Origin: a virus
IMG/VR virus record: IMGVR_UViG_3300020193_000020
Span: 1 to 62,654 of that record
Reading direction: 5' to 3' (one strand)
DNA: 62,654 nt
The notes below the pieces were generated by a model. That model was not told the DNA's origin and did no database searches. It saw only the letters and a program-made list of their open reading frames with translations. The position numbers and the translations under genes were made by a program. Positions 2,497 to 58,805 of this stretch are shown here, one piece after another. Position 1 is the stretch's first letter. Each line of letters begins with the position of its first letter.

Positions 2497-5447
2497 TAAA
2501 AAGTTCCCCCGTCAATAGTATTTGACCATTGTACGTTAGTTCCCGATGAATTTAAGAAATATCCTTCAGCACCAATTGCTAATTTAGATAAAGTGTTTGT
2601 AGCAGATGCGTACAATAAATCACCTGTTGTATAAGTAGTGATATTTGTACCACCTCTTGCAATATCAATTGTAGAACCATTCCAAACACCAGTTGCAATT
2701 GTCCCCAGCGTTGTAATAGAAGTTTGACCAACATATGTTGATGCAATATCAATTGAATCCGCATTAGCAACAATTCTATTAGTTGTTCCAATTACATCTA
2801 AAGTATTTCCTGTTTTTGTTAAACCACTTCCAGCAGTAATTTGTCCTGCGCCAGAGAATTGTGAGAATACGATTGCAGTTGTACCAACAATAATTGTTGT
2901 AGCTGTTATCTGTACGAAACCATTAGAACCATTAATTGTACCACCAGACACAAACATATAATCGCCAGCACGAATTTCTCCTGTTGGGGAATTATCGAAG
3001 TCAGTTGATCTTGTCCAGACACCATTCGCACCTGTACCAACAGTTGTAACATCATATACACCATTATAAGCTGAAGTAGTATGATTCTTAACAAGAATTC
3101 TATAACCAACTTGTAAGGATTCACCTTCAACGGTATCTGGTGTTCCAGTTAGTTGAGCACCAACACCTTGATTAGCAGTTACTGAAATTGATAAACTTGA
3201 ACCATTAGTTAAAGTATGAACTGAACCACCAGGAGAGGTAGAAACTGTTACTTGATTTAAATTTGGTAAAGAAATTACAAAGTAAGTTGTTCCAGAAACT
3301 AAACCATTTGATGTTGCATTTGATTTAATTTGTGATCCTAATACTAAAGAATGATTTGCGCTGAATGTGATAACATCAGACGCAATCGTGTTAATTGTTA
3401 ATGTAGTACCACCACTAACATAAGCATAAGAAACTGCATCTGTTGTTGCAAAATTAACAGAGCCATGAACGTTTAATGATGAAGCAATTGCATCAGCATA
3501 CTCTTTATTAACAGCATCATTAGCAAAAACCGGATATGCTACACCCGAAATTCTTGAGAAACCAGAAGATGTATTTGTAACATCAACAACACCAGTTCCG
3601 GTTGGTTTAATGAAAACTGAATTATTTCCAGAAGCTGCTTGAATTGTTAAGGAACCAGAAGTTGCAGTAATAGATGTTGCTGTTGCTGAACCTAGAACTG
3701 GTGTAACTAGTGTTGGTGTATTTGCGAAAACTAATGCACCTGAACCAGTTTCATCAGAAATTACACTAGCCAATTCAGAAGAAGAAGTTGAAGCAAAAGC
3801 CGATAACTTCTCACTAGTATATACTACAGTACCCCCACCACCAAATGCAACAGAAGAAGCATCAGTACCAGTAAATGTTAAAGAATTACTTACTGTTAAA
3901 GTTTTACTATTTGCAATTGTTAAAGTACCAGTGGTTGAAGTAATTGTTAAACCATTAATACTTGTGGCTGTTGCAACACCAAGGGTTGGTGTTGTTAAGA
4001 TTGGTGATGTTAGAGTTTTATTTGTTAAAGTCTGAGAAGCAGCAACTAAAACAACCGTATCAGTAGTTGCAACACCAGGAATTGTTATAGTTCCTGTTGC
4101 TGTGGCTGAAGTAATAATTGTTGTTGTTCCTGAAGAAGAACCAGCAATTGTAAAACCACCAGAACCAATAGCAGGAGTAGTTAAAGATGGTGAATTTGAA
4201 AAAACTAATGAACCAGTTCCGGTTTCATCAGAAATAATACCAGCTAATTGTGAAGAAGTTGTTGACGCAAATACAGATAAGTTATTTTGTGTATAAGCAA
4301 CAGTCCCACCTGTTCCAAATGTTAGAGTTGATCCATCTGTTCCAGTAAAAGCTACACTATTATTTGCAGTTAAAGTTTTTCCATTTGCAATTGTTAGAGT
4401 GCCTGTGGTTGAAGTAATAACCAAACCATTAATAGAAGTTGCAGTTGCTGCTCCTAAAGATGGAGTTACTAAAGTTGGAGAGGTTGCAAATACTAATTGT
4501 CCAGAACCAGTTTCATCAGAACAAGCTGTTTTTAATTCAGAAGAAGTAAATGTAACTGTATTATTTGTAAAACTAATTGTTTTATTTGTAAGAGTATCTG
4601 ATGTTGCACGTCCAACTAAAGTATCTGTTGATGTTGGAAGTGTTAAAGTTCCTGTATTTTTAATTGATGAAACTTCAACATATCCAGTTACTACGGTATT
4701 ACCACCAATATAAACATTTTTTGCAACGCCAATACCACCAGCAGTTATTAATGAACCCGATGATGTACTTGTGGATTCTGTTGTTGCCGCTAGATTAACA
4801 TTTACAATAGTTGAATCAATGTCAATTGAATTTGTATCAATTAACATTCTTAAAGCTGAATTTGTATAAAATCTTAAAGTATCATCACCAGCACCAACAG
4901 TTAATTCTGCTGTAATAAAAGTTTGACCATCAACAGACTTAACACCACCCAAAGAAGACCAAAAAGTTGAATAACCCTCAAATGAAGCATTATCGCTATT
5001 ATAGCGAATCATACCAGAGGCGGCTGTTGGTTGTTGTGCAGTTGTACCAACCGGAACTTTTAATGCAGTTGTACCAGTTACATTAACATAACCAGTTCCA
5101 TTAGCGGTTAATTCTAGGTTTCCATTTGAATTGGTGATTGAAATAGTATTACCATCTAAAGTAATATTATCTACTAATAATTCATTAATTTTTTTGGAAG
5201 CATCAACTAAAATTGCAGAAGAAGCAGTAAGTGTTCCCTGTTGGTGATCCAACATATCCATGAAATACTTACCACCAATAACAACTGGATTACCATTAGG
5301 GGATGTATTATCACCGACGAATAATCTACCACCACCATCAGCATATGTTCCTGCACCCAGAGTATAGGCTAATTCACCATAATTAAGTGTTGCTGGTGCT
5401 GTTGAACCAGTCGATCTTTTGATTTTTATGACGTTTGCTTGTGGCAT
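2496..5447 (-). CDS. Large tail fibre protein (983 aa)
   Basis: The protein is beta-rich, dominated by Thr, Ser, Gly and Asn. It starts with a phage-fibre-type N-terminus (IKIKRSTGSTAPATLNYGEL) followed by a G-G-R-L-F-V-G-D motif, which resembles attachment domains of marine T4-like fibres. Residues about 300-620 contain repeats with recurring ATATSING, TSTTGTLTIAN and ISDETG-G-LVF elements. A distinct domain follows at about 640-840. The C-terminus ends in a short motif repeated in other fibres (NVQWS). A late-type promoter lies at 5472-5479, about 25 bases before the ATG. The role is probably a long or side tail fibre; no direct T4 gene equivalent is assigned. Confidence 0.85.
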   Translation of the reverse strand: MPQANVIKIKRSTGSTAPATLNYGELAYTLGAGTYADGGGRLFVGDNTSPNGNPVVIGGKYFMDMLDHQQGTLTASSAILVDASKKINELLVDNITLDGNTISITNSNGNLELTANGTGYVNVTGTTALKVPVGTTAQQPTAASGMIRYNSDNASFEGYSTFWSSLGGVKSVDGQTFITAELTVGAGDDTLRFYTNSALRMLIDTNSIDIDSTIVNVNLAATTESTSTSSGSLITAGGIGVAKNVYIGGNTVVTGYVEVSSIKNTGTLTLPTSTDTLVGRATSDTLTNKTISFTNNTVTFTSSELKTACSDETGSGQLVFATSPTLVTPSLGAATATSINGLVITSTTGTLTIANGKTLTANNSVAFTGTDGSTLTFGTGGTVAYTQNNLSVFASTTSSQLAGIISDETGTGSLVFSNSPSLTTPAIGSGGFTIAGSSSGTTTIITSATATGTITIPGVATTDTVVLVAASQTLTNKTLTSPILTTPTLGVATATSINGLTITSTTGTLTIANSKTLTVSNSLTFTGTDASSVAFGGGGTVVYTSEKLSAFASTSSSELASVISDETGSGALVFANTPTLVTPVLGSATATSITATSGSLTIQAASGNNSVFIKPTGTGVVDVTNTSSGFSRISGVAYPVFANDAVNKEYADAIASSLNVHGSVNFATTDAVSYAYVSGGTTLTINTIASDVITFSANHSLVLGSQIKSNATSNGLVSGTTYFVISLPNLNQVTVSTSPGGSVHTLTNGSSLSISVTANQGVGAQLTGTPDTVEGESLQVGYRILVKNHTTSAYNGVYDVTTVGTGANGVWTRSTDFDNSPTGEIRAGDYMFVSGGTINGSNGFVQITATTIIVGTTAIVFSQFSGAGQITAGSGLTKTGNTLDVIGTTNRIVANADSIDIASTYVGQTSITTLGTIATGVWNGSTIDIARGGTNITTYTTGDLLYASATNTLSKLAIGAEGYFLNSSGTNVQWSNTIDGGTF

Positions 5448-34160: not shown

Positions 34161-34738
34161 CAGTTTTCCTTGAAATGATTATCAATAATTTGTAAATATT
34201 TATCATTGTATTTCAAGAAAGGTGTGTACTTTTTAATTCTGTTAGAAAATTCCTTCCATATAACATCAGTAAATATATTATCCCATTGATTTATGAAGTT
34301 ATATTTTTTATCGAGAATAATTAATGTTTCTAAATTAATTTCGTTTTGTAAAACCATTACCAGCAACTTAGGAAATTGTTTATTTTTAACGGCAAACAAG
34401 TCTATAATTTCTGATAATACTTTACATTCATTATTCAAAATATATTCAAATGATTGTTGTTTTTTTAACCATTCTAAGTATGTATCTTCACAACTATCAT
34501 CGAAATAATCACCAACCCATAAGTTAGGATTGTAAATCATGTTAGAACAAAAGAAGTTTTCAACTTGTTCTGGTGTGTTGAATTTTTTTCCTAACTTTTC
34601 AAAAAAGAATTTGTCTTTTCGTTTATTGTATGTTTCAAATTTAACATTCAGTTTTTTATTATATTTGAAATAATCGTATTTTCCTGTAAAATGAGATTTA
34701 ATTGAAACATACTTTATATAAACTTCAAATCCTGTCAT
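34160..34738 (-). CDS. 59: Helicase loader gp59
   Basis: The 192-residue protein matches T4 gp59 in layout: GFEVYIKYVSIKSHFTGKYDYFKYN, KRKDKFFFEKLGKKF, then MIYNPNLWVGDYFDD and a C-terminal helical domain ending FLKYNDKYLQIIDN. gp59 loads the gp41 helicase on gp32-covered forks. Its gene sits close to gp32, its binding partner. It is slightly shorter than T4 gp59 (217). The start overlaps the gp33 stop by four bases, so it is likely translated with gp33. Confidence 0.85.
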   Translation of the reverse strand: MTGFEVYIKYVSIKSHFTGKYDYFKYNKKLNVKFETYNKRKDKFFFEKLGKKFNTPEQVENFFCSNMIYNPNLWVGDYFDDSCEDTYLEWLKKQQSFEYILNNECKVLSEIIDLFAVKNKQFPKLLVMVLQNEINLETLIILDKKYNFINQWDNIFTDVIWKEFSNRIKKYTPFLKYNDKYLQIIDNHFKEN

Positions 34739-35028
34739 AGAAAAACTTGATTAACTTTTTTCAAAAGATTTAAGTTCATTCCCTCAAGATACAAATTATC
34801 TCTAATGTTATCATTGATTAGTTGGGGAACATACTCAACAGGTAAATCATGTAAATTACAATAATAAATTACTGATTCTATATAAGAGAGTTTTTGTTCT
34901 TTGACCAACTGTTCTATATTAGAACAAAAGAAATTCTTTCTCTGTTTAATGCTTTTATGTAAGTTTTCTACTTGTGTTGTGTTCAATTCAAAAAGTTCTT
35001 GTTCATTATTTTCCATAACCATATCCAT
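34735..35028 (-). CDS. 33: Late transcription co-activator gp33
   Basis: Residues about 37-85 match the T4 gp33 pattern (a charged helix, LVKEQKLSYIESVIYYC, then LPVEYVPQLINDNIRDNL). gp33 links RNA polymerase to the sliding clamp, so late transcription depends on replication. Its presence agrees with the TATAAATA motifs in the window, though no gp55 sigma gene is in the window. A consensus promoter has its TATAAT exactly six bases before this ATG and there is no ribosome-binding site, which suggests a leaderless transcript. In-frame ATGs also occur at codons 3 and 5. An antisense copy of the start region occurs at 29351-29369. Confidence 0.8.
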   Translation of the reverse strand: MDMVMENNEQELFELNTTQVENLHKSIKQRKNFFCSNIEQLVKEQKLSYIESVIYYCNLHDLPVEYVPQLINDNIRDNLYLEGMNLNLLKKVNQVFL

Positions 35029-36890: not shown

Positions 36891-37589
36891 TTAATCATTA
36901 AATTCACTTGTGTGATGCAACCCAATACAATACTTAATTGGTAGTGTTTTGTGATCAAGTTTGCACATAGGAACAGGATTTTTTGATACTGTTATATTAT
37001 AACCACCCCTGATCATCTTCCAATTTTCAGGAGGAATATTGACCTTATAATTAAATGGTGGTTTAATAAAAAGATCAAGACTTCCTCTGGGTGTTAGGTT
37101 TGTTTTAATATCTCTGTAGTATACGGTTGTTTGGTTGGTTGAAGTATTACCTTCAATAGTCAACATATTCAAACCGAAAATACTTCCAAGTGTACTAATC
37201 TTTGTAATATCTTCTTCGTCAATACTGAAATTAAGAATTGGATTAACAATATGTAGATTTTTATCTACTGATTCAACTGTTTCGGGATCGGCATAAGGAT
37301 ATTCAACAGCATACTTTCCAGCAGATGTGATCAACATCTTATCTTCTTGAAATGTAATATCACAACCATTTGTTCCACTGCTATGAAACGTACTGATTAC
37401 ACTAAGAAGTTGCTTTAGATTATGAATCGCAAACTCCTTAGTGAATACATCTTTAATTTCAGCTTCAGCAAATACTGTTTTAAGAACATTTTTTGTTTTA
37501 AGTACGTTTCCGGGTTTAATATAGATATTCTGATTAATCGTAGAAAAATTATACAGAATATCCATGGTTTCTTTAGAAATAATCATCAT
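36891..37589 (-). CDS. 45: Sliding clamp gp45
   Basis: The first half follows gp45 (ISKETMDILYNFSTINQNIYIKPGNVLKTK, then TVFAEAEIKDVF and FAIHNLKQLLSVIS); the end SEFND matches the acidic C-terminus. gp45 is a trimeric ring that tethers DNA polymerase and, with gp33, activates late promoters. The 232-residue length is the family's size. Its start overlaps the cobS-like gene by 17 bases; two ATGs (37589, 37586) are possible. A 46-base internal piece (37118-37163) is duplicated at 29370-29415. Confidence 0.9.
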   Translation of the reverse strand: MMIISKETMDILYNFSTINQNIYIKPGNVLKTKNVLKTVFAEAEIKDVFTKEFAIHNLKQLLSVISTFHSSGTNGCDITFQEDKMLITSAGKYAVEYPYADPETVESVDKNLHIVNPILNFSIDEEDITKISTLGSIFGLNMLTIEGNTSTNQTTVYYRDIKTNLTPRGSLDLFIKPPFNYKVNIPPENWKMIRGGYNITVSKNPVPMCKLDHKTLPIKYCIGLHHTSEFND

Positions 37590-40884: not shown

Positions 40885-41388
40885 ATGTCTGTTCTTGTAT
40901 TAAATTCTCAATACCTACCAATCCAAACTACTACTATACAAAAAGCGATAAAGCTTATTTTCAGAGGGGTAGCACAAATTGAAAAATATTCTGATAAAGT
41001 TTGGAAGTCTGTTTCGAATGAAATAGTATTACCTACTGTAATCAGATTAATAAACTTTCATTCTTTTCCAAAGAGAACGTATAGACTTTCTAAAAAGAAT
41101 ATTTGTGTTCGTGATAAATACACATGTCAATATTGTTCTGTGGTGTTATCAGAAAAATCCTTAACGGTTGATCATATTATACCGAAATCAAAAGGGGGGT
41201 CTGATAAATGGGAAAATCTTGTTTCTGCTTGCAAATCATGCAATTTAAGAAAAGCCGATAAAAGACCCGAAGAAGTTGGGATGAAACTTTTATCAAAACC
41301 TTCGAAAATCTCAATTCATACACACACAACAATTATCAGGAATAAAGGATTAAACAATCCAGATTGGACAGAATTTTTATTTAATTAA
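40885..41388 (+). CDS. HNH endonuclease
   Basis: The 167-residue protein has the common bacterial HNH layout: VLNSQYLPI at the start, a CQYC pair near residue 80, the catalytic LTVDHIIPKSKGG motif, then WENLVSACKSCNLRKADKRPEE with the second C-x-x-C. It is likely a free-standing nuclease; in phages such genes act in homing, host DNA attack or packaging. It is not beside a split gene, so homing is not indicated. A perfect early promoter precedes it. No clear ribosome-binding site is seen. Confidence 0.92.
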   Translation: MSVLVLNSQYLPIQTTTIQKAIKLIFRGVAQIEKYSDKVWKSVSNEIVLPTVIRLINFHSFPKRTYRLSKKNICVRDKYTCQYCSVVLSEKSLTVDHIIPKSKGGSDKWENLVSACKSCNLRKADKRPEEVGMKLLSKPSKISIHTHTTIIRNKGLNNPDWTEFLFN

Positions 41389-55193: not shown

Positions 55194-56279
55194 ATGACTA
55201 AACAAAAAGACGATTATTTTGATGAGTTAATTAAATTAACAGACAATAAATATGCATCACTAGCAGCAGATGGTATTGAAGCGGGAGACGTTACTGGTTA
55301 TGTAACAACTGGTTCATATATGATGAATGCGATTTTATCAGGTTCAATTTATGGAGGATTACCTAATAATAAAATTACAGCAATTGCTGGTGAAGAAGCT
55401 ACCGGAAAAACATATATTGTACTTGATATATGTAAATCATATTTAGAAAAAAATGCTAATGCTGCTGTTTTTTATTTTGAAACAGAGTCAGCACTTTCTA
55501 AAAGTATTCTTCAAGAAAGAGGCATTAAAACAGATAAATTTTACATCCTCCCAGTAACAACAGTTCAAGAATTCAGAACACAAATGTTAAAAATTCTAGA
55601 AGGTTATTTGTCCCAATCAAAAGCTGAACGTCAACCTTTAATACTTGTTTTAGATTCATTAGGTATGTTATCTACAACAAAAGAACTGGAAGATTCAACT
55701 TCTGGTTCTGAAACTAAAGACATGACCAGAGCAGCATTATTCAAAGCCACATTTAGAACTATTACATTAAAACTTGGACGTGCTGGTGTTCCTTTAATAG
55801 TAACAAATCATACATATGATGAACAAGGTAAAATGTTTGCTGCAAAAGTAATGTCGGGGGGTTCTGGTCTGAAGTATGCCGCATCTTCAATATTATTTCT
55901 TTCAAAAGCAAAAGATAAAGCTGGTAACGATGTTGTAGGAAACATTATAACAGTAACTAACAAAAAGGGAAGATTAACTAAAGAAAATTCTCAAATAAAA
56001 CTAAAATTAAATTATGATACTGGTTTAAATCCTTATTATGGTCTTTTAGAATTAGGAGAAAAATATAAACTATTTACTAAAATTTCTAATAAGTATGAGA
56101 TTAATGGTCAAAAAGCTTTTGAGAGTGTTATTCTAAAAAATCCAGAAAAATATTTTACTAAAGATATTCTGGATCAGTTAGATGTTTGCGCTAGAGAAGA
56201 ATTTTATTATGGATTGAAAAAGAAAAATTATTCAGAAACACAAGAAGATACTAATGAGGGAGATGAAGATGACGAATGA
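55194..56279 (+). CDS. uvsX: RecA-like recombinase UvsX
   Basis: RecA-fold ATPase with Walker A GEEATGKT near residues 66-73, Walker B LILVLDSLG near 147-155 and a TNHTYDEQGKMF region for strand exchange. The N-terminal YASLAADGIEAGDVTGYVTTGSYMMNAILSG block matches UvsX. It pairs ssDNA with homologous duplex, starting recombination-dependent replication together with gp32. 361 residues is slightly less than T4 UvsX. The acidic C-terminal tail overlaps the next gene. Confidence 0.95.
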   Translation: MTKQKDDYFDELIKLTDNKYASLAADGIEAGDVTGYVTTGSYMMNAILSGSIYGGLPNNKITAIAGEEATGKTYIVLDICKSYLEKNANAAVFYFETESALSKSILQERGIKTDKFYILPVTTVQEFRTQMLKILEGYLSQSKAERQPLILVLDSLGMLSTTKELEDSTSGSETKDMTRAALFKATFRTITLKLGRAGVPLIVTNHTYDEQGKMFAAKVMSGGSGLKYAASSILFLSKAKDKAGNDVVGNIITVTNKKGRLTKENSQIKLKLNYDTGLNPYYGLLELGEKYKLFTKISNKYEINGQKAFESVILKNPEKYFTKDILDQLDVCAREEFYYGLKKKNYSETQEDTNEGDEDDE

Positions 56280-56577
56280 ATTTAATGTTAATTATGTAAA
56301 AATTAAAGATGATATTGTTGTTAAAATTTTAGAAGAAAAATACTTGAATGTTATGTTCAAATATGATAAACTAGAAGTAAATGATGATATTCTTACGTTC
56401 AATATAGATGTAGTTGATTCAAGTAACATTTCTGAAGAAGTGTTAGATGGTGACGAATTTAGTAATTACTGTAGTGATTTGCTAGCACACTTATTGAAAA
56501 AATCAATGGAACTTGAAGAAGGTAATTTAAAAGATAATAATGACAGCAGAGAAAGTGATTCTAAAGAATCTGATTAA
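56269..56577 (+). CDS. Small conserved protein between uvsX and gp41
   Basis: The protein reads MTNEFNVNYVKIKDDIVVKILEEKYLNVMFKYDKLEVNDD, followed by a SEEVLDGDEFSNYCSDLLAHLLKK helix and an acidic tail. A protein of this pattern lies at the same place in other T4-like phages; its function is unknown to me. It is not UvsY by sequence. It overlaps both uvsX and the helicase gene, so it is part of the same translated unit. The start could also be 56263 or 56254. Confidence 0.65.
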   Translation: MTNEFNVNYVKIKDDIVVKILEEKYLNVMFKYDKLEVNDDILTFNIDVVDSSNISEEVLDGDEFSNYCSDLLAHLLKKSMELEEGNLKDNNDSRESDSKESD

Positions 56578-58300
56578 AAACGATGATTATGTGAGAAAGG
56601 TTCTTCCGTTTATTGATGAAGAATATTTTTCAAACTCACATGAGAGAATTATGTTCTCTCATGTGAGAGATTATTTTAATCAGTATAATAATACTCCTTC
56701 GAAAGAAGCCTTGGGTATTATTATATCAAATGATAAAAAAATTAATGAAAAAGATTTTGAATCTATTAAAGAAACACTAACTGAAATTAATGATGATAAT
56801 GAACAAACAAACACAGATTTTTTAATTCATACAACAGAAAAATTCTGTAAAGACAAAGCAATTTATAACGCAATCATTAAATCGGTGAATATCATTGAAG
56901 GTAAAGATCAAAAATTAGATACTGGTGTTTTACCTAAATTACTTAGTGATGCATTAGCTGTATCATTTGATAATCATATCGGTCATGATTACATTGACAA
57001 TTATCAAGAACGATATGAATTTTATCACAGGAAAGAAAATAAAGTTCCTTTTGGTCTTGACTATTTTAATAGAATTACTTCTGGTGGAGTTAGTGAAAAA
57101 ACATTAACAGTTATTTTAGCGGGGTGTGTTCATCCAGACACAAAAGTTAAGATACGATTTAAGAAAAAAATGATATGGACAGAAAAAGAAGTAAATATTT
57201 CAGAAATTAAAGAATTACTAGAAGATGGTTATGAAGTTGAAGTTTCATCTCCGGATGATTGGGTTAAAGTAAATTATTTTATAGATAAAGGTTTGTGGGA
57301 AGAATATATTTTACAAACAAATGATGGCAGAATAATCAGATGTAATCAAGATCATTTATTTGAAACTCAACATGGTTGGTTACCTGCTAACCATTTAGTT
57401 AATATGCAATCAGTAAAATTTTTAAATATTACTGGGGAATATGTTGATGGGAAAGTTGAAAAAACTAATAATATGATTCCGATTGTTGATATTAATGTTG
57501 AACATAAAAATCATAGGTATTATACAAACGGAATATCTAGTCATAATACCGGAGTTGGAAAATCTTTGTTTATGTGTGATATGGCATCATCAACATTTAT
57601 GGGTGGGAAAAATGTTCTTTATATCACATTAGAAATGTCAGAAGAAAGAATTGCTGAAAGAATTGACTCAAACCTTTTAAATGTTCCCATCACAGAAATG
57701 AGAAAATTATCAATTGATAATTTCTCTAAGAAAATTTCTGCTGTTAAAACTAGAACTGGTGGAAAGTTAGTTGTTAAAGAATATCCAACAGCATCAGCAA
57801 ACGTAAATCATTTTAGAACATTACTCAATGAACTACAAATCAAAAAGAATTTTATTCCAGATATTATCTTCATTGATTATTTAAATATATGCACAAGTTC
57901 AAGAATGAAAGTTGGTTCAAATGTAAATAGTTATACATACATTAAATCAATTGCTGAAGAAATTCGTGGTTTAGCTGTTGAATTTTCTATTCCTATTGTT
58001 AGTGCAACACAAACCACAAGATCGGGTTTTTGTTTGTCTTTGGATACAAAAATCATAATAAACGATGGTGAAGCGATACCAATTGAAGATGTTAAAGTTG
58101 GTGATAAAGTCTTGTCTAATACAGAATATAATATTGTTACTTATGTATTTCCAAAAAGAAAAAAGAAATTATATAAAGTAACGACCAAATCAGGAAAAAG
58201 TATATTGTGTAGTGAAGAACATATTTTTCCCACCAAAAACGGAGATAGGTCACTTAAAACAGGAATGGGTGTTGGAGATTTTTTACTGATTAGGGACTAG
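56540..58300 (+). CDS. 41: Replicative helicase gp41, N-terminal part with a mini-intein and the N-half of a split intein
   Basis: Residues 1-195 are the helicase N-domain and start of the RecA-like domain (GLDYFNRITSGGVSEKTLTVILAG). Residues 196-336 are an intein inserted in the Walker A loop. The helicase resumes TGVGKSLFMCDMA, and continues through IIFIDYLNICTSS (Walker B) and EIRGLAVEFSIPIVSATQTTRSGF. At residue 498 a second intein begins and the frame ends after 89 residues of it. The missing helicase end lies in the gene at 58368. Splicing of both would give 356 + 108 = 464 residues, close to T4 gp41 (475). The DnaB-type helicase unwinds DNA at the fork. Confidence 0.95.
   Translation: MTAEKVILKNLIKNDDYVRKVLPFIDEEYFSNSHERIMFSHVRDYFNQYNNTPSKEALGIIISNDKKINEKDFESIKETLTEINDDNEQTNTDFLIHTTEKFCKDKAIYNAIIKSVNIIEGKDQKLDTGVLPKLLSDALAVSFDNHIGHDYIDNYQERYEFYHRKENKVPFGLDYFNRITSGGVSEKTLTVILAGCVHPDTKVKIRFKKKMIWTEKEVNISEIKELLEDGYEVEVSSPDDWVKVNYFIDKGLWEEYILQTNDGRIIRCNQDHLFETQHGWLPANHLVNMQSVKFLNITGEYVDGKVEKTNNMIPIVDINVEHKNHRYYTNGISSHNTGVGKSLFMCDMASSTFMGGKNVLYITLEMSEERIAERIDSNLLNVPITEMRKLSIDNFSKKISAVKTRTGGKLVVKEYPTASANVNHFRTLLNELQIKKNFIPDIIFIDYLNICTSSRMKVGSNVNSYTYIKSIAEEIRGLAVEFSIPIVSATQTTRSGFCLSLDTKIIINDGEAIPIEDVKVGDKVLSNTEYNIVTYVFPKRKKKLYKVTTKSGKSILCSEEHIFPTKNGDRSLKTGMGVGDFLLIRD
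56635..56667 (+). repeat. Intragenic inverted repeat (14 bp stem, 5 nt loop)
   Basis: Arms CTCACATGAGAGAA and TTCTCTCATGTGAG around TTATG, near the 5' end of the helicase gene. Confidence 0.88.
57125..57547 (+). other. Mini-intein (141 aa) in the gp41 P-loop
   Basis: Splice junctions: Cys1 of CVHPDTKVKI (block A) after ILAG, and the C-terminal Asn of NHRYYTNGISSHN (blocks F and G) before Thr of TGVGKS. Block B is seen as IIRCNQDHLFET with its His. There is no room for a homing endonuclease. Removal restores the Walker A sequence AGTGVGKS, so the helicase cannot bind ATP until splicing occurs. Confidence 0.93.
58031..58300 (+). other. Split intein N-half (89 aa)
   Basis: Begins CLSLDTKIII after the extein TTRSGF. 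Block B appears as ILCSEEHIFPT. It resembles the known gp41-1 and gp41-8 split-intein N-halves in sequence, length and insertion context. It ends at a natural stop after FLLIRD. Confidence 0.93.
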
Positions 58301-58306
58301 AAGATA

Positions 58307-58314
58307 TATAAATA
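58307..58314 (+). promoter_or_regulatory. TATAAATA motif between the two intein halves
   Basis: An exact late-promoter match seven bases after the stop of the N-part, 53 bases before the ATG of the C-part. It may allow separate late expression of the C-part; GAGGT lies upstream of that ATG. Confidence 0.5.
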
Positions 58315-58367
58315 AATCGTAAAAGGTTCTCAGCCTTCAGGATACAAGCGAGGTAGAAAATTAAAAA

Positions 58368-58478
58368 ATGATATACGATGAAATCGTTGAAATTTGTGAA
58401 GTTGGTGAGATGGATTCTATAGACATAGAAGTATCTGGAAACCATTATTTTTTTGCAAATGATATATTGACGCACAAC
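58368..58478 (+). other. Split intein C-half (37 aa)
   Basis: Block F IDIEVSGNHYFFANDIL and block G LTHN with C-terminal Asn. The length and motif match the C-halves of the gp41-1 type. Confidence 0.93.
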
Positions 58479-58805
58479 TCAAATTCAGATCCAGGCTTAG
58501 AAGATACTTCAGAATCATTTGGTTTACCTGCAACCGCAGATTTAATGTTTGCTTTGATTAGTAGTGAAGAACTGGAAAAAATGAATCAGATAATGGTAAA
58601 GCAATTAAAAAATCGTTATGCTGATCCATCTATGTATAAAAAGTTTGTTATTGGAATTGATAAATCAAGAATGAAATTATATGATATTGATAATGATACA
58701 CAAACTTTAATTGATTCGGGACATGAAGAAGATGAAGAAGTTGAAAATGTATTGAAAAAATCTAAATTCTCATTTAAAAATAAATTTTCAGATTTCAAAT
58801 TTTGA
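58368..58805 (+). CDS. 41: Split intein C-half fused to the gp41 helicase C-terminus
   Basis: Residues 1-37 are the intein C-half and residues 38-145 are the end of the helicase (SNSDPGLEDTSESFGLPATADLMFAL, then a QLKNRYADPSMYKKFVIGIDKSRMKLYD region with the arginine finger, and an acidic tail). Ser38 is the +1 residue. Trans-splicing with the upstream product would restore the full helicase. The gap between the genes is 67 bases and holds no homing endonuclease. The acidic tail could bind gp59 or primase. Confidence 0.93.
   Translation: MIYDEIVEICEVGEMDSIDIEVSGNHYFFANDILTHNSNSDPGLEDTSESFGLPATADLMFALISSEELEKMNQIMVKQLKNRYADPSMYKKFVIGIDKSRMKLYDIDNDTQTLIDSGHEEDEEVENVLKKSKFSFKNKFSDFKF

What the first reader, a model, noticed from the sequence alone, without database searches (positions are those of the whole stretch)
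56540..58805. gp41 helicase needs both cis- and trans-splicing: P-loop mini-intein plus split intein in one gene
Seen: a 141-residue intein (Cys196 to Asn336) separates ILAG from TGVGKS, so ATP binding is impossible before splicing. A second intein is divided between two genes: 89 residues at the end of the first and 37 at the start of the second, with extein ends TTRSGF and SNSD. Known: gp41-1 and gp41-8 split inteins came from metagenomic fragments of phage helicases and splice very fast. Inference: this window gives a phage genomic context for such an intein, with a second intein in the same enzyme. Active helicase would appear only after two splicing events and after two proteins meet, a possible timing control on replication.
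Basis: partly seen in the sequence, partly recalled or inferred. Interest (0 to 1): 0.88.

Follow-up and report, generated by a model that had tools for sequence, protein, structure and literature searches.

The report
Phage helicase with two inteins
In this uncultured T4-like phage the DNA-unwinding enzyme must remove one self-splicing insert from its ATP-binding site and be stitched together from two separately made proteins by a second one, and its relatives suggest that the broken second insert is what remains after a selfish endonuclease gene was lost.

Summary
gp41 carries a 141-aa intein in the P-loop and a gp41-1-like split intein (89 + 37 aa) at TTRSGF/SNSD; the three exteins add up to 464 aa. 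The P-loop intein is a contiguous relative of VidaL, an intein naturally split after about 16 aa (PDB sequence match 2e-10; AlphaFold pLDDT 95.5; best PDB fold VidaL). The arrangement is not unique: contiguous P-loop plus split second site occurs in about four sampled lineages, one carrying gp41-1 itself, and some relatives have both inteins split (helicase in three pieces). It is still rare: 77 of the 80 nearest gp41 loci in IMG/VR have neither intein. In most intein-bearing relatives the halves flank a homing-endonuclease gene (HEG), often with a T4-type late promoter (TATAAATA). The window's 67-nt gap has the promoter in the matching place and an ORF tail resembling HEG tails (3 of 5000 shuffles as good), its stop 97 nt before the extein as in intact loci. 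Other loci hold longer, unmistakable remnants. Best reading: a split intein left after HEG deletion. Timing control of replication is possible but untested. The intein classes are known; the loss series and contiguous/split sister pairs appear new.

The parts
56540..57124 (+). gp41 helicase, N-extein (195 aa)
   Evidence: phrog_19; PDB 8due DnaB-like replicative helicase
57125..57547 (+). P-loop intein, contiguous, 141 aa, Cys1...His-Asn, +1 Thr; relative of the split VidaL intein
57164..57174 (+). approximate place (after intein residue 14-16) where split relatives are broken; turn between strands 7-14 and 17-24 of the model; length-variable among contiguous relatives
57548..58030 (+). gp41 middle extein (161 aa), begins TGVGKS, ends TTRSGF
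   Evidence: Pfam DnaB_C 7.8e-17
58031..58297 (+). split intein N half, 89 aa (stop 58298-58300)
   Evidence: gp41-1 6qaz 1.8e-20; TIGR01445 3.9e-9
58301..58367 (+). 67-nt gap between the halves, stop codons in all frames
58307..58314 (+). TATAAATA, T4 late-promoter consensus, 6 nt after the N-half stop, 61 nt before the C-half ATG
58316..58381 (+). probable 3' remnant of a GIY-YIG homing-endonuclease ORF (IVKGSQPSGYKRGRKLKNDIR*); stop ends 97 nt before the extein
58350..58354 (+). GAGGT, candidate ribosome-binding site of the C-half gene (13 nt before ATG)
   Evidence: read
58368..58478 (+). split intein C half, 37 aa, ends ...ANDILTHN, +1 Ser
   Evidence: gp41-1 6qaz 3.1e-9; TIGR01443
58479..58805 (+). 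gp41 C-extein (108 aa plus stop)
   Evidence: phrog_19 7.4e-21
34735..35028 (-). gp33-like late-transcription regulator (makes use of late promoters plausible)
   Evidence: phrog_254 4.8e-14
36891..37589 (-). gp45-like sliding clamp (needed for T4-type late transcription)
   Evidence: phrog_223 2e-43

Best explanation
The helicase is made as two polypeptides and matured by two splicing reactions. The P-loop intein excises itself in cis and restores the Walker A motif; the halves of the gp41-1-like intein meet, splice in trans and join the C-extein, giving a helicase of about 464 aa. The second intein is split because a homing-endonuclease gene once sat between its halves; an internal deletion removed nearly all of that gene, leaving its late promoter and about the last 20 codons, which overlap the start of the C-half gene. 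The P-loop intein belongs to a lineage that exists in both contiguous and split form, the split form usually holding an insert with an endonuclease gene, often in antisense. Shown: anatomy, homology, the series in relatives. Inferred: splicing activity in this phage and the deletion in this particular genome.
For: Homology of both inteins and all three exteins. Relatives with intact endonuclease genes in the gap at the same site, and HEG-less ones with graded remnants: L051 (about 60 aa of HEG tail), L056 (44 aa), L016 (GRLGNVV), L021, L140, L310. In the window: TATAAATA 6 nt after the N stop, as in many HEG-bearing loci (2-33 nt in most); 9 of 24 non-redundant loci have it there against 0.77 expected; a profile of intact HEG tails scores the gap frame 7.5 bits, reached by 3 of 5000 shuffles; its stop lies 97 nt before the extein, as in L015, L026, L055. 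P-loop site: L140/L156 (contiguous) and L082 (split with insert) are 96-99% identical on both sides of the insert; L129/L173 and L101/L081 likewise at lower identity; the contiguous state needs at least 11 changes on the tree, 4 forced by well supported branches.
Against: A general alignment of the gap peptides to HEG proteins is not significant (76 of 600 shuffles as good), and the exact tail pattern has no match in IMG/VR or phage records. The window's closest second-site relatives (L032/L035) are also HEG-less, with no clear remnant. The tail profile was built after the peptide had been noticed. No splicing data.
Confidence: 0.83

Rival explanations
1. The split is a regulatory device: the late promoter in the gap makes the C half a late product, so active helicase appears only when late transcription starts.
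For: TATAAATA 61 nt before the C-half ATG, a candidate RBS, gp33 and gp45 homologues in the window.
Against: The same element precedes endonuclease genes in relatives; most HEG-less second-site loci (L016, L022, L032, L051, L057, L140) lack it; the C half can also be read from upstream transcripts, and no stable hairpin is predicted in the gap (z -0.08). Helicase is needed before late transcription in T4 (own knowledge).
Confidence: 0.12
2. The gene is broken: the gap is a damaging mutation or an assembly error, and the helicase is non-functional or contiguous in the real phage.
For: Metagenomic contig; no expression data.
Against: The break falls at the canonical gp41-1 split, the C half has its own ATG, C-intein and conserved C-extein; independent contigs have short gaps at the same place; none of the second-site inteins sampled is contiguous.
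Confidence: 0.04
3. The split arose without any endonuclease (simple stop and new start), and promoter and tail are coincidence.
For: L327 has only an in-frame TAA-AAT between its halves; general alignment of the gap to HEGs not significant.
Against: TATAAATA chance in a shuffled gap 3.7%; tail profile 3/5000; both lie at HEG-typical places.
Confidence: 0.12
4. No trans-splicing: the two polypeptides assemble non-covalently, as for split NrdA of phage Aeh1, or the ribosome bypasses the gap.
For: Non-covalent genes-in-pieces enzymes exist in T4-like phages (PMC2988022).
Against: Both halves carry complete intein motifs of a class known to splice fast; stops in all three frames and an own start codon argue against bypass.
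Confidence: 0.04

Closest known systems
gp41-1 split intein (PDB 6qaz, 6riz; GOS metagenome, cyanophage-like gp41 helicase)
   Same: Same host gene, insertion context, split point and half sizes; clear sequence homology of both halves
   Different: About 48% identical to the gp41-1-type N half of L140; here in a gene that also has a contiguous P-loop intein and with a HEG-less gap
VidaL split intein (PDB 6vgv)
   Same: Best sequence and fold match of the P-loop intein
   Different: VidaL is split after 16 aa (PMC13014065); the window's copy is contiguous
Fractured genes of Dassa et al. 2009 (gene, split intein, free-standing endonuclease between the halves)
   Same: Intact examples are common among intein-bearing relatives at both sites
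   Different: The window has no endonuclease ORF in the gap, only a probable remnant; the paper itself could not be read here
T4 HEGs under late promoters (I-TevI and others; PMC2988022)
   Same: Late-promoter consensus directly before endonuclease genes in many gaps
   Different: Here inside split inteins; in the window the promoter has lost its gene

Membership tests
gp41-1-class split intein | sequence homology of both halves to gp41-1 | tested here: met
gp41-1-class split intein | insertion at TRSG[YF]/S of gp41 and split into about 88 + 37 aa | tested here: met
gp41-1-class split intein | trans-splicing activity | not testable with these tools
   needs expression; catalytic residues present
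VidaL-like atypically split intein | homology and HINT fold | tested here: met
VidaL-like atypically split intein | natural break after about 16 residues | tested here: not met
   reading frame contiguous in the window; the break is present in 79 loci of relatives
Fractured gene (Dassa et al. 2009) | host gene broken in two by a split intein | tested here: met
Fractured gene (Dassa et al. 2009) | free-standing endonuclease gene between the halves | tested here: not met
   67-nt gap; probable remnant only
T4 gp41 replicative helicase | DnaB-like helicase profile over all three exteins, Walker A restored after splicing | tested here: met

The most novel reading that the evidence does not exclude
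Phage helicase inteins move back and forth between contiguous and split forms as endonuclease genes enter and leave, and when the endonuclease is lost its late promoter can be kept and taken over, so that the C half of the helicase becomes a late-transcribed gene and replication is gated by the relic of a selfish element.
Probability: 0.15. Interest if true: 0.85.

Novelty: new variant of a known kind. Interest (0 to 1): 0.62.

Why it matters
How split inteins arise, and why they stay split, has been argued mainly from intact endonuclease-bearing loci (own knowledge). Here sister loci that are almost identical but differ in contiguous against split state, and a graded series of endonuclease remnants, turn that into something directly testable. 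The survey also shows helicases encoded in three pieces that would need two trans-splicing events, and yields natural contiguous and split versions of VidaL-like inteins and many gp41-1-like ones, which are of use as protein-engineering tools.

Tried and rejected
Cultured phages: no match to the window's split N half; P-loop intein matches are to UvsX, terminase and unannotated genes at 25-36% identity. Hairpin in the gap: none stronger than shuffles. HEG remnant by exact tail pattern in IMG/VR and by tblastn in phages: no match; by general alignment: not significant; by tail profile: 3 of 5000 (one search was a failed run of the same test). Global enrichment of TATAAATA in the window: none (14 found, 14.5 expected), although 6 of 58 ORFs have it within 70 nt upstream against 0.96 expected, with the largest shuffle also 6. 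Direction of change in the L140/L082 pair: unresolved, both directions fit the junction. The paper of Dassa et al. 2009 is not in the library, so what it reports on gp41 is from memory and from papers citing it. Papers with the phrase 'two split inteins' and phage helicase: none held.

Full report
OBSERVATION. ORF 56540-58300 holds helicase residues 1-195, a 141-aa intein, helicase 161 aa, and 89 aa of intein; ORF 58368-58805 holds 37 aa of intein and 108 aa of helicase. The helicase parts match phage DnaB-like replicative helicases, and the locus follows gp43-like polymerase and uvsX. One gp41 copy is present in the window.

THE TWO INTEINS. The split intein is of the gp41-1 class. The P-loop intein is closest to VidaL by sequence and by fold (AlphaFold pLDDT 95.5; Foldseek 1.9e-10, TM 0.87). 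VidaL is naturally split, with a 16-aa N fragment, right after the second strand (PMC13014065). In the model this place is the turn between strands 7-14 and 17-24, and among contiguous relatives it is a place where length and sequence vary.

SURVEY OF RELATIVES. Pattern scans and homology searches of IMG/VR gave over 160 gp41 loci with an intein at the P-loop (site A) or at TRSG[FY]/S (site B). In the first set, site A was split in 79 loci, with N pieces mostly of 14-20 aa beginning CVHP, and contiguous in 16, the window among them; site B was split in 47 loci and never contiguous, still never contiguous after the set was enlarged to 112 records, some of them repeats. Contiguous A plus split B occurs in the window, L016, L140/L282/L284 and L325-L330; both are split in L018, L021, L051, L121, L125, L319, and, with the second intein about 10 aa further on, L064, L116, L164. 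L020 has two split inteins in series. L140 carries gp41-1 itself (N half, 5e-52). In the 80 nearest gp41 loci taken without regard to inteins, 77 have none at either site. The two inteins occur together more often than in that set (Fisher p 0.011 and 0.009); the samples were drawn differently, so this is only suggestive.

WHAT LIES IN THE GAPS. At site B most gaps hold a sense ORF of about 220-260 aa; the largest cluster has an N-terminal GIY-YIG-like motif (read by eye) and NUMOD3, another is HNH_3 (2e-13). At site A ORFs of one HNH-like cluster are found, antisense in many loci and sense in others (L013 matches HNH only at 0.017, below the family cut-off); in many A gaps my ORF search, which was limited to the gap, found no long ORF. 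The T4 late-promoter consensus TATAAATA lies just after the N-half stop at site B (9 of 24 non-redundant loci, 0.77 expected) and on the opposite strand at the far end of the gap at site A (24 of 48, 0.79 expected), and on the other strand in none of these stretches. T4 intron endonucleases have late or middle promoters inside early or middle units (PMC2988022).

HEG LOSS AND STATE CHANGES. At site B, HEG-less loci keep pieces of the HEG 3' end with the stop at the usual distance from the extein: L051 and L056 (97 nt), L021 (100), L140 (113, the tail of a second ORF seen in L034), and L016 with only GRLGNVV. At site A, L075 and L100 are 99% identical outside a 670-nt difference, and L075 still has the antisense late promoter with no gene: a deletion. 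L140/L156 (contiguous) against L082 (split with insert) are 96-99% identical on both sides, net difference 724 nt. On the site-A tree the contiguous state needs at least 11 changes, 4 of them forced by well supported branches; on the site-B tree presence of the HEG changes at least 6 times, 3 forced.

THE WINDOW'S GAP. TATAAATA starts 6 nt after the N-half stop. One frame reads IVKGSQPSGYKRGRKLKNDIR and stops 97 nt before the extein, as the HEGs of L015, L026 and L055 do. A profile of intact HEG tails scores this frame 7.5 bits; 3 of 5000 dinucleotide shuffles do as well. The simpler motif G[YFW]xxGR, in 12 of 14 HEG tails, appears in 0.035% of shuffled gaps, TATAAATA in 3.7%. Against this, a general alignment to HEGs is not significant, no exact match of the tail exists in the collections searched, and I noticed the peptide before building the profile. 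I put the scar reading at about 0.8 for this genome; for L051, L056 and L140 it is practically certain.

MECHANISM. After cis-splicing of the P-loop intein the sequence reads ILAG-TGVGKS, restoring Walker A; trans-splicing joins TTRSGF to SNSD. Both are inferred from motifs and homology. In many HEG-bearing loci the start of the C-half gene overlaps the HEG's 3' end, so an internal deletion that keeps the C half translatable will also keep the HEG tail and leave the intein split; this may explain why site B is never seen contiguous (inference).

VERDICT. Real, well preserved and rare, but of known kinds: a gp41-1-class split intein and a VidaL-class intein in one gene. The new part is evolutionary: the P-loop site appears contiguous, split with endonuclease, and split after its loss, with sister pairs, and the gp41-1 site appears split with and without its endonuclease. 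The timing-control idea rests only on a promoter consensus that has a simpler origin.

Noticed in passing
L020:2472-5479: Two split inteins in series in one helicase, at the gp41-1 site and about 10 aa further on, with ORFs between the halves.
   Followed up: partly
L018, L051, L121, L125, L319: Helicases whose P-loop and gp41-1-site inteins are both split: three polypeptides and two trans-splicing events would be needed.
   Followed up: partly
L327 (site B): Split intein whose halves are separated only by an in-frame stop and one codon (TAA AAT ATG), close to the smallest possible split.
   Followed up: no
L086 (site-B gap): The gap carries, besides a HEG, an ORF that looks like a DNA methyltransferase by eye (LILCDLPY, NTMGSGSTGVA motifs); gaps also collect other ORFs (L017, L025, L034).
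   Followed up: no
L254:901-1284 (Pseudomonas phage vB_Pa-PAC2, UvsX-like gene): The annotated RecA-like gene starts at the match to the C part of the P-loop intein, so UvsX in PA5oct-type phages may be naturally split by a VidaL-like intein and annotated without its N part.
   Followed up: partly
window 56254-56577: 107-aa ORF between uvsX and gp41 without any PHROG family; L013 has an ORF of similar size in the same place (3239-3595).
   Followed up: no
window 40885-41388: HNH endonuclease gene elsewhere in the window (phrog_16726, 2.6e-33).
   Followed up: no
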